Shown one piece after another: positions 14,847 through 22,469 of a stretch of 64,000 bases of DNA. Numbering within the stretch: position 1 is the stretch's first letter; every line of letters begins with the position of its first letter. The translations under genes and the position numbers were made by a program. The stretch covers positions 62,001-126,000 of the forward strand of contig NZ_WSZK01000012.1 of NCBI RefSeq assembly GCF_009791395.1, in the 5' to 3' direction. Below the pieces are notes generated by a model. That model saw only the letters and a list, made by a program, of their open reading frames with translations. It was not told the origin of the DNA and did not search any database. The stretch comes from Halomarina oriensis. GTDB taxonomy: Archaea; Halobacteriota; Halobacteria; Halobacteriales; Haloarculaceae.

Positions 14847-15242
14847 TCAGTACGGACCGAACCGCCGGACAGCGAGCAGTTCACGAAGCCCCTCTGTATC
14901 GAAGTCGTCGTCGGAGACGACCAGTTCTTTCCGTTCAGACCGAGCCGTCGCTGCAATCATGAGGTCACGCGGCGACATCGGGACACCGGATTCGAGCAGG
15001 TGATCCTGCATCCGGGCAGCCTCGAACGCGACGTCCTCGGAGAAGGCAAGGGGAACGACTCGCCCGAAGTGTCTACGCGCCTCGACGAGGTCGGTCTCAC
15101 CTGCCGAGAACACGTCACCCGCGAGCACCTCGTAGACACAGATGCTGGAGGTGGCCAACTGCGATTGGTCGTCGACGAACTCGACGATCTCTTCGACCCC
15201 GTCGAGGTAGTCGATGATGACCGACGAATCGAGGAACGTCAC
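14847..15242 (-). CDS. PIN-domain toxin (VapC-like)
   Basis: A 131-residue PIN-domain ribonuclease. The four conserved acidic positions are visible: Asp in MTFLDSSVIIDYLDG, Glu in CVYEVLAG, Asp in MSPRDLMIAATA, and Asp in VVSDDDFD. VapC toxins cleave RNA, often tRNA, and are held inactive by the partner antitoxin. The start overlaps the antitoxin stop by ATGA at 15239-15242, the usual coupled arrangement. It is located between two copies of the chorismate mutase 3' end repeat, in an accessory region. The specific RNA target is unknown. Confidence 0.85.
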   Translation of the reverse strand: MTFLDSSVIIDYLDGVEEIVEFVDDQSQLATSSICVYEVLAGDVFSAGETDLVEARRHFGRVVPLAFSEDVAFEAARMQDHLLESGVPMSPRDLMIAATARSERKELVVSDDDFDTEGLRELLAVRRFGPY

Positions 15243-15439
15243 TGCTCGTAGCTCTCACGGGACCGTTCGATCGCCTCACGCGCTTTCTCGGCTTTGTCAG
15301 TCCCTTTCCACGCCCCTGCTGTCATCCCCGACTCCTCGTTCGCCAAGCGGTCCAGGAACTCGTCCCAACTCTCGTCTCCACGCTTCAGCCTCGCCAACTT
15401 CTCTTTCGTCTCGTCGGAGACCCGGATCGACGTGCTCAT
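15239..15439 (-). CDS. VapB-type antitoxin
   Basis: A 66-residue protein, MSTSIRVSDETKEKLARLK at the start, with a beta strand plus helix resembling ribbon-helix-helix DNA-binding antitoxins. The helical C-terminal tail (TDKAEKAREAIERSRESYEQ) would wrap the toxin. I chose ATG 15439; ATG 15445 would add two residues. The first gene of the pair, it is probably autoregulated by the antitoxin-toxin complex, as is general for the family. Confidence 0.8.
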   Translation of the reverse strand: MSTSIRVSDETKEKLARLKRGDESWDEFLDRLANEESGMTAGAWKGTDKAEKAREAIERSRESYEQ

Positions 15440-15533
15440 ACGCATACATCGCGTATGCAGACGGAAGTAGTTTGAGGGGTGGTCGGCAGGAGCGTAACAG
15501 CGTGGGTAGGTAGTATGGTAGGTTTTATCTCGT

Positions 15534-15565
15534 TGAACGAGGTCGAGCAACGGAGCGAGCGGTAG
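15534..15565 (+). repeat. Direct repeat copy C (imperfect)
   Basis: A 32-bp match to copy A with three mismatches, ending in the same cggagcgagcggtag. Weak gapless similarity to the copy B flank continues for about 25 bp (tccgaacggttc versus ttcgaacgcttc). Confidence 0.7.
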
Positions 15566-17086: not shown

Positions 17087-17158
17087 TACCGACGGCTACG
17101 GAGGTATCGACGACCACAGACCTACCGACGGCCACGAATCTATCGACGACCACGGACT
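17087..17158. repeat. Two 36-bp imperfect tandem repeats
   Basis: Two adjacent 36-bp units each begin with taccgacgg and contain tatcgacgaccac. They sit in the 225-nt gap between the regulator start and the orc gene stop. Confidence 0.5.
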
Positions 17159-17230
17159 CGGGAGCGGTCGGAGACGAGCGGTCGGTGAGACGCCGACGGT
17201 CGGCGGTGTCTCACGGCGGAGAGACGGTAC

Positions 17231-17244
17231 CGTCGCCGCTGTAA
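17231..17244 (+). repeat. Single origin-type motif downstream of orc
   Basis: cgtcgccgctgtaa matches the core of the motif iterated at 18554-19170, but lies on the other side of the orc gene, just after its stop codon. Confidence 0.6.
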
Positions 17245-17260
17245 ACACGACGGCCGTCCG

Positions 17261-18511
17261 TCACTCTTCGAGCGGTTCGAGTCGGTCGTCGCGGAGCAGG
17301 ACTTCGAGGACGATGTCCGGCGACTCCAGCAGTCGATGTTTCCCGGTGACCCCCTCGCCACGCCCACGACTCTCCTTCGTCGAGTCGATGACGTTGAGGA
17401 AGTCCTGCTCTTGGAGGAGTTCGCGGGTTCGACGCTCCGACAGCGCGTCGAGGTCGATGGCGGCCGCCGTCCGTGTGTACGCGTGGTAGATCTCCCGTGA
17501 GGTGAACTCGACGCCGTCGTTGTTCGTCGTCAGTTTCGTGAGCGCGTAGAGCAACACCTTCGCCTGGAGCGGCGACCCGTCGATGAGTTCGGCGAGGCGG
17601 TCGACCTCGGTCTTCTCCTTGGCCTGTCGGATGTGGTCCTCGGTGACCGTCTCCTCGTCGACGCGCTTGGCGATACGGCCGGCGTTCCGCAGGATGTCGA
17701 TGGCCTTCCGCGCGTCACCGTGTTCCTGTGCGGCGAGCGCCGCGGCCAGCGGAATCGCGTCGTCGGTCAGCACGCCGTCGTGGAACGCGTCGCGTCGGTT
17801 CTCCAGTATCTCGCCGAGTTGGTTCGCGTCGTACGGCGGGAAGACGAGTTCGTCGCGGGAGAAGGAGGATTTGACGCGTTCGGACATCTGGTCCGGGTAG
17901 TCGATCTTGTTCGAGATGCCGATGACGCCGATGCGGGCGCTGTCGATGCGTCGGTTCTCGCTGGCCCGCGAGAGTTTGCGGAGCACCTCGTCGTCCTCCA
18001 GCATGTCTATCTCGTCGAGGATGACGATGGCGACGTCGGTACAGGTGTCGAGGACGGTCCAGAGGCGCTCGTAGTAGTCGCCGGTCGCCAGCCCACGCTC
18101 GGGGACGGTGAACTCGGTCCGTTCGGGGTCGTTGAGCGACTGGGCGACCCGTTTGACGACCGACGCCTCGGTGTTCTTCTCGCCACAGTCGATGAACGCG
18201 TACTGGACGGTGACCCCCTCTCGGTCCGCTTCGGTCTGGAGCATCTCGGTGACCGACCGCGATATGAGCGTCTTCCCGGTGCCTGTCTTCCCGAAGACGA
18301 AGAGGTGGGAGGGAGCAGAACCGAAGATAGCCGGGTTCAGCGCGTCCGCGACCTTCTGCATGTGTTCGTCGCGCCCGACGATACGCTCGGGGGCGGGGAG
18401 GTGACCGATCTCCAGCAGGTCCTCGTCGGCGAAGATAGTGTCCGTGTAGTCGAAGAGGGTGTTTCGCTCCTCGGAGAGGTCGGAGTCCCGAGGAACGTCG
18501 TTGGTGGGCAT
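17261..18511 (-). CDS. Orc1/Cdc6-type replication initiator
   Basis: A 416-residue AAA+ protein of the archaeal Orc1/Cdc6 family, which binds origin recognition boxes and starts replication. Walker A GKTGTGKT is at residues 74-81, Walker B VAIVILDEIDMLED follows near 165, and the sensor-1 segment GVIGISNKIDYPD near 195. The C-terminal winged helix covers about the last 80 residues. I chose ATG 18511, where a TATA box at 18535-18546 gives leaderless spacing. Upstream lies a 0.6-kb gene-free region of repeated motifs, the usual arrangement of a haloarchaeal origin next to its own orc gene. Haloarchaea carry many orc paralogs, so no number is assigned. Confidence 0.92.
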   Translation of the reverse strand: MPTNDVPRDSDLSEERNTLFDYTDTIFADEDLLEIGHLPAPERIVGRDEHMQKVADALNPAIFGSAPSHLFVFGKTGTGKTLISRSVTEMLQTEADREGVTVQYAFIDCGEKNTEASVVKRVAQSLNDPERTEFTVPERGLATGDYYERLWTVLDTCTDVAIVILDEIDMLEDDEVLRKLSRASENRRIDSARIGVIGISNKIDYPDQMSERVKSSFSRDELVFPPYDANQLGEILENRRDAFHDGVLTDDAIPLAAALAAQEHGDARKAIDILRNAGRIAKRVDEETVTEDHIRQAKEKTEVDRLAELIDGSPLQAKVLLYALTKLTTNNDGVEFTSREIYHAYTRTAAAIDLDALSERRTRELLQEQDFLNVIDSTKESRGRGEGVTGKHRLLESPDIVLEVLLRDDRLEPLEE

Positions 18512-18534: not shown

Positions 18535-18546
18535 TAGTATATAGAA
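18535..18546 (-). promoter_or_regulatory. orc promoter TATA box
   Basis: On the minus strand the sequence reads ctatatacta, about 27 nt before ATG 18511. One copy of the iterated origin motif ends roughly 14 nt further upstream, so initiator binding there could affect transcription. Confidence 0.6.
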
Positions 18547-18553
18547 CAGTAGG

Positions 18554-19170
18554 CATCGCCGCCGCTGTAAATCGGCTCTCAGACCACGCCTGATATCACG
18601 ATACACCCGTCTCGTGGAGACCGGCTCGAACGGTGAACTCGCCACTGTAACCGCGACATCTCGTGAGACGGCCTCACAACGGGGTGTCGTCGCCGCTGTA
18701 AATGTGCGCCGAGCGGCACTCAGAGCGGTTCTGGAGTAGAAGACCGCTCGGCCATCGTCCGGGAGTGGGACACCACCGTCGCCGCTGTAAGACCGGTCGA
18801 AGGTGGGTGGGGGGAGGTGTCGTCGCCGCTGTATCGTCGGAACGGTGTTCTCGGAGCACTCCACTCACCACCACCACCACTGTAACAGACACGACACACT
18901 ACTCTAGAGACGAGGAGACACCACCGTCGCCGCTGTAAATAGTCGTTAGGGTATCGATACAGACGCTCTCGGCTCGGTTCGGCCGTGGATGGTGAACGAC
19001 GACACACCACCATCGCCGCTGTAAGTCCCGGACGACCGGTCGACGACGTGGAAGCCGACGACTTTCGCGGACTACCGCCGCTGCTGTAACCGTCGACACC
19101 GACTCGGCAGGGTGGCTGTAGCCGACCTCCCTCCCCTCCCACGTCGTTACAGCGGCGAGGGTGGTGTGTC
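18554..19170. other. Candidate replication origin with iterated Orc-box-like motifs
   Basis: This gene-free region upstream of orc carries about nine direct motifs resembling caccaccgtcgccgctgtaa. Their 3' ends fall near 18570, 18650, 18701, 18790, 18833, 18885, 18938, 19024 and 19089; the fullest copies are those ending at 18790, 18938 and 19024. One inverted copy starts at 19147. The spacing is 43-89 bp. The motif differs from the familiar haloarchaeal origin boxes I know. An array beside a cognate orc gene, including an inverted copy, is typical of archaeal origins. A modest AT-rich stretch lies near 18936-18965. Confidence 0.65.
19147..19170 (-). repeat. Inverted copy of the origin motif
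   Basis: ttacagcggcgagggtggtg on the plus strand is the reverse complement of the direct motif. Together with the direct copies upstream it gives the inverted arrangement often seen flanking an unwinding element. Confidence 0.6.
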
Positions 19171-20810: not shown

Positions 20811-22469
20811 ATGAAGAACCCAGAAACCCCCGTCGGTCGACGAACGGTACTGAAAGGCATCGGTGCGAGCGCGTTGTTGGCAACAGGCGGTGCTACCCTC
20901 TCGGGGACCGCCGCGGCACAGTCCACCGATCGCTCGGCGATGTTCACGTTCACGGACGACTGTACCGGTGTCGACGTGACGCTCGGCGGCTACGACGGTC
21001 GGTACACGCTCGAAGTCCTACTAGAGAACGGCAACACCACGACCCGGAGCAAGCAGGCTCCCGCCGGCACCAGCCGGAGCTTCAGTTTCGCACGGAGCAT
21101 CGTCAAAGCCCGCGTGCTGGTCGACGACACGGTCGTCGGGAGCGCGGTCTGCCCATCCGCGACCATCCAGTTCACGGACGACTGCACCGGTGTCGACGTG
21201 ACGCTCGGCGGCTACGACGGTCGGTACACGCTCGAAGTCCTCCTGGAGAACGGCAACACCACGACCCGGAGCAAGCAGGCTCCCGCCGGCACCAGTCGGA
21301 GCTTCAGTTTCGCACGGAGCGTCGTCAAGGCACGAGTGAGCCTCTACGGCGTCGTCGTCGGGAGCGCGGTCTGTCCGGCCGCCGACATCCAGTTCTCCGA
21401 GGACTGCACGGGTGTCGACGTCGCCATCGACGGCTACAGCGGTCGGTACACGCTGGCCGTCGAGTTCGAGAACGGCAACACCACGACGCGGAGCAAGCAG
21501 GCCCCCGCCGGTACCAGTCGGAGTTTCAGCTTCGCCCGCCAGGTGGCGACGGCTCGCGTCGTCGTCGCCGGCGTCGTCGTCGGCAGCGCGACCTGTGAGC
21601 CGACCGACGACGACCCCGGTTCGGCGACCATCGCGTTCACCGACGACTGCACGGGCGTCGACGTGACGCGCGAGGAAGCGGACGGCGAGTTCACGCTCGA
21701 GGTCCTGCTGGACACCGGCAACACGACGACGCGAACGAAGGCCGCTCCCGCCGGGGAGACCCGGAGCTTCACGTTCGCCCGCGGTATCGTGAAGGCGCGC
21801 GTCCGTGTCGACGGCGAGATCGTCGCCAGCGCCATCTGCCCGACGCCGACGCTCACCTTCTCGGAGGACTGCACCGGAGTGACCGTCGAGATAGACGGCT
21901 ACAGCGGCTGGTTCGTCCTCGAAGCCGAACTCGCGAACGGGAACACGAAGACCCGGATGAAGAAGCTCCCCGAGGACGGTTCGCGGAGCTTCACGTTCGC
22001 CCGCGCCATGACCAAGGCCCGTGTGAAGGTCCAGGGTGTCGTCCTCGGCAGCGCGACGTGCATGCCGGCCGCGGAGACGACGTACTACCAGGTCGACTTC
22101 GTCGGCGGAACGCCCGAGGAGCTGCTGGGCGAGACGCGCGACGACTTCTACAGCCCGCAGGGGCGACTCGTCCGCTACCTCCACGGGAGCACCGAGGAAC
22201 CGATGATGCGACAGAGCACGCCGCCCTCGCTGTCGGCGGCCCTCGCCGACTGCGTCACCGTCGACGAGATGACCGTCGACGACATGGCCGGAACCGCGAC
22301 GGTGGCGTTCACCGTCGCCGACGGCTGTGAGGAGGAACTGTCGCTCGCGTCCTACCAGAAAGACGGTCCCGGCTTCGACCCGACCGAGCTGCAGACGCTC
22401 TTCGACGGCGAGACCGACACGTACGGCCCCGGTGAGTACGAAATCACCGTTCAGCTCCCCGGCTACTGA
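20811..22469 (+). CDS. Tat-exported protein with five tandem approximately 74-residue repeats
   Basis: A 552-residue protein. The N-terminus carries a twin-arginine signal (GRRTVLKG, hydrophobic ASALLATGGATLSG, cleavage near TAAAQ), so it is exported folded. Five imperfect repeats follow, at about residues 44-117, 118-191, 192-272, 273-346 and 347-420. Each opens with F(T/S)xDCTGV and contains NGNTxTRxK, then SFxFAR, and ends GSAxC or similar. Each repeat has one Cys near its start and one near its end, which could pair as a disulphide. Repeats 1 and 2 are nearly identical in DNA with a 222-bp period. A distinct C-terminal domain of about 130 residues follows. Function unknown; a surface or secreted beta-rich protein is likely. 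Confidence 0.8.
   Translation: MKNPETPVGRRTVLKGIGASALLATGGATLSGTAAAQSTDRSAMFTFTDDCTGVDVTLGGYDGRYTLEVLLENGNTTTRSKQAPAGTSRSFSFARSIVKARVLVDDTVVGSAVCPSATIQFTDDCTGVDVTLGGYDGRYTLEVLLENGNTTTRSKQAPAGTSRSFSFARSVVKARVSLYGVVVGSAVCPAADIQFSEDCTGVDVAIDGYSGRYTLAVEFENGNTTTRSKQAPAGTSRSFSFARQVATARVVVAGVVVGSATCEPTDDDPGSATIAFTDDCTGVDVTREEADGEFTLEVLLDTGNTTTRTKAAPAGETRSFTFARGIVKARVRVDGEIVASAICPTPTLTFSEDCTGVTVEIDGYSGWFVLEAELANGNTKTRMKKLPEDGSRSFTFARAMTKARVKVQGVVLGSATCMPAAETTYYQVDFVGGTPEELLGETRDDFYSPQGRLVRYLHGSTEEPMMRQSTPPSLSAALADCVTVDEMTVDDMAGTATVAFTVADGCEEELSLASYQKDGPGFDPTELQTLFDGETDTYGPGEYEITVQLPGY

What the first reader, a model, noticed from the sequence alone, without database searches (positions are those of the whole stretch)
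18554..19170. Iterated motif array next to orc: candidate origin with an unfamiliar box
About nine direct motifs and one inverted copy like caccaccgtcgccgctgtaa lie in a 0.6-kb gene-free region upstream of an Orc1/Cdc6 gene, with one more core copy just after the gene's stop (17231-17244). The array and a cognate initiator gene fit a haloarchaeal replication origin. The motif is unlike the origin boxes I recall for haloarchaea, so the initiator may recognise a distinct sequence.
Basis: partly seen in the sequence, partly recalled or inferred. Interest (0 to 1): 0.65.

Follow-up and report, generated by a model that had tools for sequence, protein, structure and literature searches.

The report
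Re-coded binding sites for replication starter
Beside the gene for a DNA-replication starter protein in a salt-loving archaeon lies a cluster of about ten matching docking sites, probably a replication start point, whose DNA code appears to have changed in step with one amino acid of the protein, making it a natural test case for how such proteins find their own sites.

Summary
Confirmed: nine direct boxes and one inverted box lie in 18551-19166, with one more (17225-17244) just after the stop of an Orc1/Cdc6 gene (17261-18511, minus strand). Of 11 exact 11-bp cores in the 4.07-Mb genome, 7 are here. In Halomarina rubra the boxes are kept (76% identity) while spacers diverge (49%).

The box is not foreign. 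On the other strand it reads TTACA-GCG-GCGACGGTGGTG, a variant of the box TTACA-NNC-GCGA found upstream of related orc genes, several on plasmids. The last base of the triplet is C in 245/245 boxes counted at 54 chromosomal and contig loci whose Orc has Q or N at recognition-helix residue 363. It is G in 15/15 boxes of the two Halomarina Orcs, which have R there. A distant Orc family with R also uses TTACAGCGG. So initiator and boxes appear to have switched code together.

Most likely this is the initiator's binding array: a probable chromosomal origin plus an operator for orc itself. Not shown: binding or firing. No AT-rich unwinding element is evident between the inverted boxes, and GC skew is inconclusive. 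New variant of a known kind.

The parts
17261..18511 (-). orc1/cdc6 initiator gene (416 aa, start ATG at 18511); recognition helix LSERRTRELL, residues 357-366
   Evidence: TIGR02928 413.7 bits (cut-off 181.3); Cdc6_C, Cdc6_lid above cut-off; best PDB relatives 2v1u, 2qby
18537..18544 (-). TATA-like element CTATATAC, about 27-30 nt before ATG 18511
   Evidence: read directly; conserved in H. rubra and in position in orthologues
18551..18570 (+). box 1, promoter-proximal, abuts the TATA-like element
   Evidence: a box in the 130 bp before the matched start in 54 of 54 orthologous loci
18631..18650 (+). box 2 (core CGCCACTGTAA)
18682..18701 (+). box 3
18771..18790 (+). box 4, perfect consensus CACCACCGTCGCCGCTGTAA
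18815..18834 (+). box 5 (ends TGTAT)
18866..18885 (+). box 6, degenerate (CACCACTGTAA)
18919..18938 (+). box 7, perfect consensus; followed by a somewhat AT-richer stretch 18939-18970
19005..19024 (+). box 8, one mismatch
19070..19089 (+). box 9, degenerate (CGCTGCTGTAA)
19147..19166 (-). box 10, the inverted copy at the distal end
   Evidence: inverted copies also at the distal end in H. rubra
17225..17244 (+). box 11, just downstream of the orc stop, overlapping palindrome ACGGTACCGT
   Evidence: conserved with its GGTACCGTCTCTCCG extension in H. rubra

Best explanation
The array is the set of origin recognition boxes of the adjacent Orc1/Cdc6 protein, probably a chromosomal replication origin of this Halomarina, with the promoter-proximal box also acting as an operator for orc. 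Proposed mechanism: the winged helix of each Orc reads the TTACA-GCG side and its AAA+ part contacts the G-rich end; several bound Orcs, including a facing pair (direct boxes against 19147-19166), recruit MCM to the DNA between them; the box next to the TATA element and the surplus boxes limit free Orc by repression and titration. The box is a derived version of the family box TTACA-NNC-GCGA: residue 363 of the recognition helix went from Q to R and box position 8 from C to G, so the pair differs in code from the other orc/box pairs of the cell. Shown by sequence: the array, its conservation, its exclusive link to this orc family, the residue/base covariation. Inferred: binding, origin firing, autoregulation, and the direct contact of residue 363 with position 8.
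For: Locus-specific motif; boxes kept while spacers diverge in H. rubra; family boxes at 54 orthologous loci, 262 upstream, 4 downstream, 11 elsewhere over 80 loci, against 6 for the reversed control; promoter-proximal box in 54 of 54; Haloprofundus plasmids of 48-52 kb with one orc match of this family and the boxes beside it; position 8 = C in 245/245 boxes with Q/N363, G in 15/15 with R363; unrelated family with R at this place and TTACAGCGG; residues 362-363 follow R360-R361, which align with ApeOrc1 R345-R346 near DNA and lie in a modelled helix; precedent that orc-adjacent ORB arrays are origins (PMC3528665, PMC3936714).
Against: No easily melted segment between the inverted boxes, and 21% of same-length segments of the contig hold an equally weak 50-mer. 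Orientation is 9 to 1 rather than balanced pairs. GC skew inconclusive: a shift on C4 but none in H. rubra. Only 3 of 146 genomes of its taxonomic family hold an orc of this kind at the threshold used, so it may be a recently acquired or dormant origin. Covariation rests on one or two independent Q-to-R changes; A8 occurs with N363 in two plasmids, and some other Orc families do not fit a one-residue rule.
Confidence: 0.7

Rival explanations
1. Regulatory array only: the boxes bind Orc but serve to repress orc and titrate the protein (compare oriC2D of Haloarcula hispanica), and replication does not start here.
For: Nine boxes point one way, one abuts the TATA-like element, no unwinding element is evident. 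An ORB-rich region without origin activity that restrains an origin is known (PMC3936714).
Against: The known negative region lies downstream of cdc6 with a separate origin upstream; here the array is the upstream region and only one box is downstream. Plasmid relatives with one orc of this family suggest the pair can drive a replicon.
Confidence: 0.2
2. Dormant or decaying origin: acquired with its orc next to the carbonic anhydrase gene, still bound but silent while other origins fire.
For: Sparse in the family; absent beside the same carbonic anhydrase gene in at least one other Halomarina; two degenerate boxes; dormant origins are known in Haloferax mediterranei (PMC4595724, abstract).
Against: Box sequences are conserved against spacer drift between two species, and the Orc is 94% conserved with an intact frame.
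Confidence: 0.25
3. The motif is a general promoter or repeat element, or chance in GC-rich DNA, unrelated to Orc.
For: One copy (18866-18885) is partly a simple CACCAC repeat.
Against: No matrix hit on the rest of the 151-kb contig; stray genome hits lie mostly inside long open frames. The sister box tracks one orc family across 54 loci.
Confidence: 0.03

Closest known systems
orc/cdc6-adjacent replication origins of haloarchaea (Wu et al. 2012, PMC3528665)
   Same: Repeated boxes in the region beside an orc1/cdc6 gene, at least one inverted copy, G-rich run at the box end, one box family per Orc family
   Different: Box sequence re-coded at position 8; no evident AT-rich element between the inverted boxes; strong orientation bias
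TTACA-NNC-GCGA boxes beside the orthologous orc genes of Natrialbaceae, Halorussus, Halogranum and Haloprofundus (found here; not located by letters in the held papers)
   Same: TTACA, GCGA and the GGTGGTG end; promoter-proximal box; distal inverted box; orthologous Orc
   Different: Triplet NNC becomes GCG or GTG; helix residue Q/N363 becomes R; ten upstream boxes instead of usually four to six
Haloarcula hispanica oriC2-cdc6E with oriC2D (PMC3936714)
   Same: Many ORBs around one cdc6 gene, suggesting titration control
   Different: There 11 ORBs lie downstream of cdc6E; here ten lie upstream and one downstream
ORB-like element TAACAGCGGAAACAGTGGGGTGG of Halorubrum lacusprofundi Hla_3512 and Haloquadratum HQ2959A (PMC3528665), and TTACAGCGGCA boxes of L149/L231-L238
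   Same: ACAGCGG half-site; R at the residue aligned with 363 in L149 and L209-L238
   Different: Different Orc family (46% identical for L149); different middle and G-rich half of the box. The helix of Hla_3512 was not checked

Membership tests
Orc1/Cdc6 replication initiator (protein) | Family model and domains: AAA+ with Walker A/B, lid, C-terminal winged helix | tested here: met
   TIGR02928, Cdc6_lid, Cdc6_C above cut-off; fold match to 2v1u and 2qby
Orc1/Cdc6 replication initiator (protein) | Arginines of recognition helix and wing that lie near DNA in ApeOrc1 (R345, R346, R367, R369) | tested here: met
   R360, R361 and the wing RGR align with them
Haloarchaeal orc-adjacent origin | Intergenic region directly beside an orc/cdc6 gene with repeated ORB-like elements | tested here: met
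Haloarchaeal orc-adjacent origin | At least one inverted pair of ORBs | tested here: met
   19147-19166 against the nine direct boxes
Haloarchaeal orc-adjacent origin | G-string at the end of the ORB | tested here: inconclusive
   GGTGGTG in boxes 4, 7, 8, 10; broken or absent in several others
Haloarchaeal orc-adjacent origin | AT-rich unwinding element between the inverted ORBs | tested here: not met
   19090-19146 is ordinary; weakest 50-mer of the array is matched in 21% of same-length segments. Spacers in the relatives are also only mildly AT-rich
Haloarchaeal orc-adjacent origin | Autonomous replication or marker-frequency peak | not testable with these tools
   needs experiment; GC skew inconclusive
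TTACA-NNN-GCGA box family | Box beside an orthologous Orc of the clade | tested here: met
   (clade of 25 rows, 100/100)
TTACA-NNN-GCGA box family | C at box position 8 | tested here: not met
   G in 15 of 15 boxes counted here and in H. rubra
oriC2D-type negative ORB cluster | ORB-rich region downstream of the cdc6 gene | tested here: not met
   one box only downstream

The most novel reading that the evidence does not exclude
An archaeal initiator and all of its boxes switched DNA specificity together through one recognition-helix change (Q363 to R, matched to box C8 to G), converging on the half-site of an unrelated Orc family. This keeps it apart from a co-resident paralogue (contig C48) that has the ancestral box, so residue 363 would be a simple code by which cells with many origins keep their initiators separate.
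Probability: 0.45. Interest if true: 0.65.

Novelty: new variant of a known kind. Interest (0 to 1): 0.5.

Why it matters
Haloarchaea run several origins, each with its own Orc1/Cdc6, and how an initiator tells its own boxes from the others is only partly understood. This locus gives a concrete minimal prediction, that one residue and one base set the pairing. Natural controls exist: T362 with Q363 keeps the old box, G363 goes with a third box, and a paralogue with the ancestral box sits in the same cell. A few gel shifts and swap mutants would test it.

Tried and rejected
Chance or general promoter motif: rejected. GC skew as a sign of origin activity: inconclusive. AT-rich unwinding element: not found. 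The pattern had three Ns instead of four and missed the window itself; it was discarded and replaced. Searches of papers with the letters of either box found no origin paper among the listed hits. PMC3089459 on origin discrimination by Orc1 is not held, so a base contact of residue 363 could not be checked. Crosstalk with the C48 paralogue as the cause of the switch: not supported, because H. rubra has the switched box and no such paralogue was found there. A simple rule 'R363 means G8' over all Orc families: not claimed, because the oriC1 family has another residue there and I recall a G at that place of its box; the alignment of boxes across families is uncertain. Matching the orthologue to one of the tested replicating fragments of Natrinema J7 (PMC5350488) was not possible without that genome's coordinates.

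Full report
What is there. The window is G000:C4:62001-126000 of a 4.07-Mb, 50-contig genome. Its nearest named relative at this locus is Halomarina rubra (Orc 94% identical), and H. rubra belongs to the same genus group in the genome search. Nine boxes on the plus strand and one on the minus strand occupy 18551-19166, upstream of an Orc1/Cdc6 gene on the minus strand (17261-18511). One more box lies 16 bp past its stop. The consensus 20-mer is CACCACCGTCGCCGCTGTAA; CTGTA is invariant in 11 of 11 copies. Seven of the 11 exact cores in the genome are here. A matrix scan of the whole 151-kb contig finds the 11 boxes and nothing else, finds none at the other orc loci examined in this genome, and finds ten local and five stray hits in 1.0 Mb of H. 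rubra. The stray hits lie mostly inside long open frames.

Constraint. H. rubra has the same plan: direct boxes, inverted copies only at the distal end, one box after the gene. Aligned box positions are 76% identical and spacers 49%. The promoter-proximal box, the TATA-like element and the downstream box with its GGTACCGTCTCTCCG extension are conserved.

A box family. Read on the other strand the box is TTACA-GCG-GCGACGGTGGTG, a half-site followed by a G-rich run, the general shape of haloarchaeal ORBs (G-string; PMC3528665 and PMC3936714). The 54 best orc loci from Natrialbaceae, Halorussus, Halogranum, Haloprofundus and Halomarina (62-94% identical) carry boxes TTACA-NNN-GCGA almost only upstream of orc: over all 80 loci fetched, 262 upstream, 4 downstream, 11 elsewhere, against 6 for the reversed control. 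All 54 have a box in the 130 bp before the matched start, typically just upstream of a TATA-like element. Most also have one or two distal boxes in the opposite orientation. Haloprofundus plasmids of 48-52 kb have one orc match of this family with these boxes beside it; in the one read in full it is the only annotated initiator, with ParA and RdfA. This supports, but does not prove, that such a pair can drive a replicon.

A changed code. Call the triplet positions 6-8 of the box. Position 8 is C in 235 of 235 boxes counted for 51 Orcs with the recognition helix SERRVQE and in 10 of 10 for three Orcs with VN. The two Halomarina Orcs have SERRTRE, and position 8 is G in 15 of 15 boxes counted (boxes that depart from TTACANNN[G/A]C[G/A]A are not counted). 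A distant Orc family (L149, 46% identical, and L209-L238) has RRVRD or RRIRD at this place; 39 of 39 boxes counted in ten of those loci read TTACA-GCG, and single boxes of that type occur in most of the others. Two Haladaptatus Orcs have T362 with Q363 and keep C8, so residue 362 alone does not switch the box. A Halorussus limi Orc with G363 has T8. An exception is A8 in one box each of two plasmids with N363. Residues 362-363 directly follow R360-R361, which align with ApeOrc1 R345-R346, reported to lie close to DNA (PMC9738581). They fall in the modelled helix 359-367 (AlphaFold2, mean pLDDT 82, but the wing itself is poorly modelled). The best structure matches are 2v1u and 2qby, both with origin DNA. 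The tree nests the window and H. rubra inside the Q/N clade (25 rows, 100/100), so Q-to-R and C-to-G are most simply placed on the Halomarina branch. In 293 genomes of the order the re-coded core CACCNNNNTCGCCNNTGTAA occurs more than once only in these two genomes.

Own-genome context. The genome has eight other Cdc6_C matches. Several have boxes of their own: C48 (63% identical paralogue, ancestral box TTACATCCGCGAGGGGGG), C45 (TTCACCGGAAACG), C28 (TTACACTCTTGACGAGG), C31 (TACACTCGGAA); none of these loci matches the window's matrix. So the window box is one of several separate codes in one cell. H. rubra lacks a C48-type paralogue, so the paralogue need not have driven the switch. The neighbouring carbonic anhydrase gene lies on the largest contigs of other Halomarina genomes, which suggests a chromosomal place. 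In one of them (G006) carbonic anhydrase and surE are present without this orc beside them in the stretch read.

Is it an active origin? For: adjacency, an inverted copy, family-wide conservation, plasmid relatives, and the precedent that five of seven predicted orc-adjacent origins in H. hispanica replicated autonomously (PMC3528665). Against: no easily melted segment between the inverted boxes, a 9:1 orientation bias, inconclusive skew, and rarity in the taxonomic family (3 of 146 genomes). My judgement: Orc binds the array, about 0.9; origin-competent, about 0.7; fires routinely in the chromosome, about 0.5.

Filing. As a protein it is an Orc1/Cdc6 initiator. As DNA it is an ORB array of that protein. 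It fails one usual feature of a haloarchaeal origin (AT-rich element) and one feature of its box family (C at position 8), so I claim that it works like an origin, not that it is a proven one. New variant of a known kind.

Noticed in passing
L149, L209-L238 (G003 and other Halobacteria): A widespread second Orc family uses TTACAGCGGCANNNNGGGGTG boxes and has R at the residue aligned with 363; it shares the half-site with the window box.
   Followed up: partly
L254 (Halorussus limi plasmid NZ_CP096660): Orc with helix RRVGELL has boxes TTACACTTGCGA on both sides of the gene: a third residue/base pairing, G363 with T8.
   Followed up: partly
17225-17244: The downstream box overlaps a palindrome ACGGTACCGT and is conserved in H. 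rubra well beyond the core; a similar GGTACC-box stands at H. rubra C15:628374 inside long open frames.
   Followed up: partly
17087-17157: Four imperfect 18-bp tandem units (TACCGACGGCTACGGAGG-like) between the downstream box and the next gene; not seen in H. rubra.
   Followed up: no
14847-15550: PIN-domain gene next to a VapB-type antitoxin gene: a likely toxin-antitoxin pair 2 kb downstream of orc.
   Followed up: no
20811-22469: 552-aa protein with five repeats of about 75 residues (TDDCTGVDV...SFSFAR); weak DUF7370 match.
   Followed up: no
L155 (G000:C5:10000-18873): An Orc homologue only 31% identical to the window's, with no repeated box found upstream; perhaps not an origin-linked Orc.
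   Followed up: no
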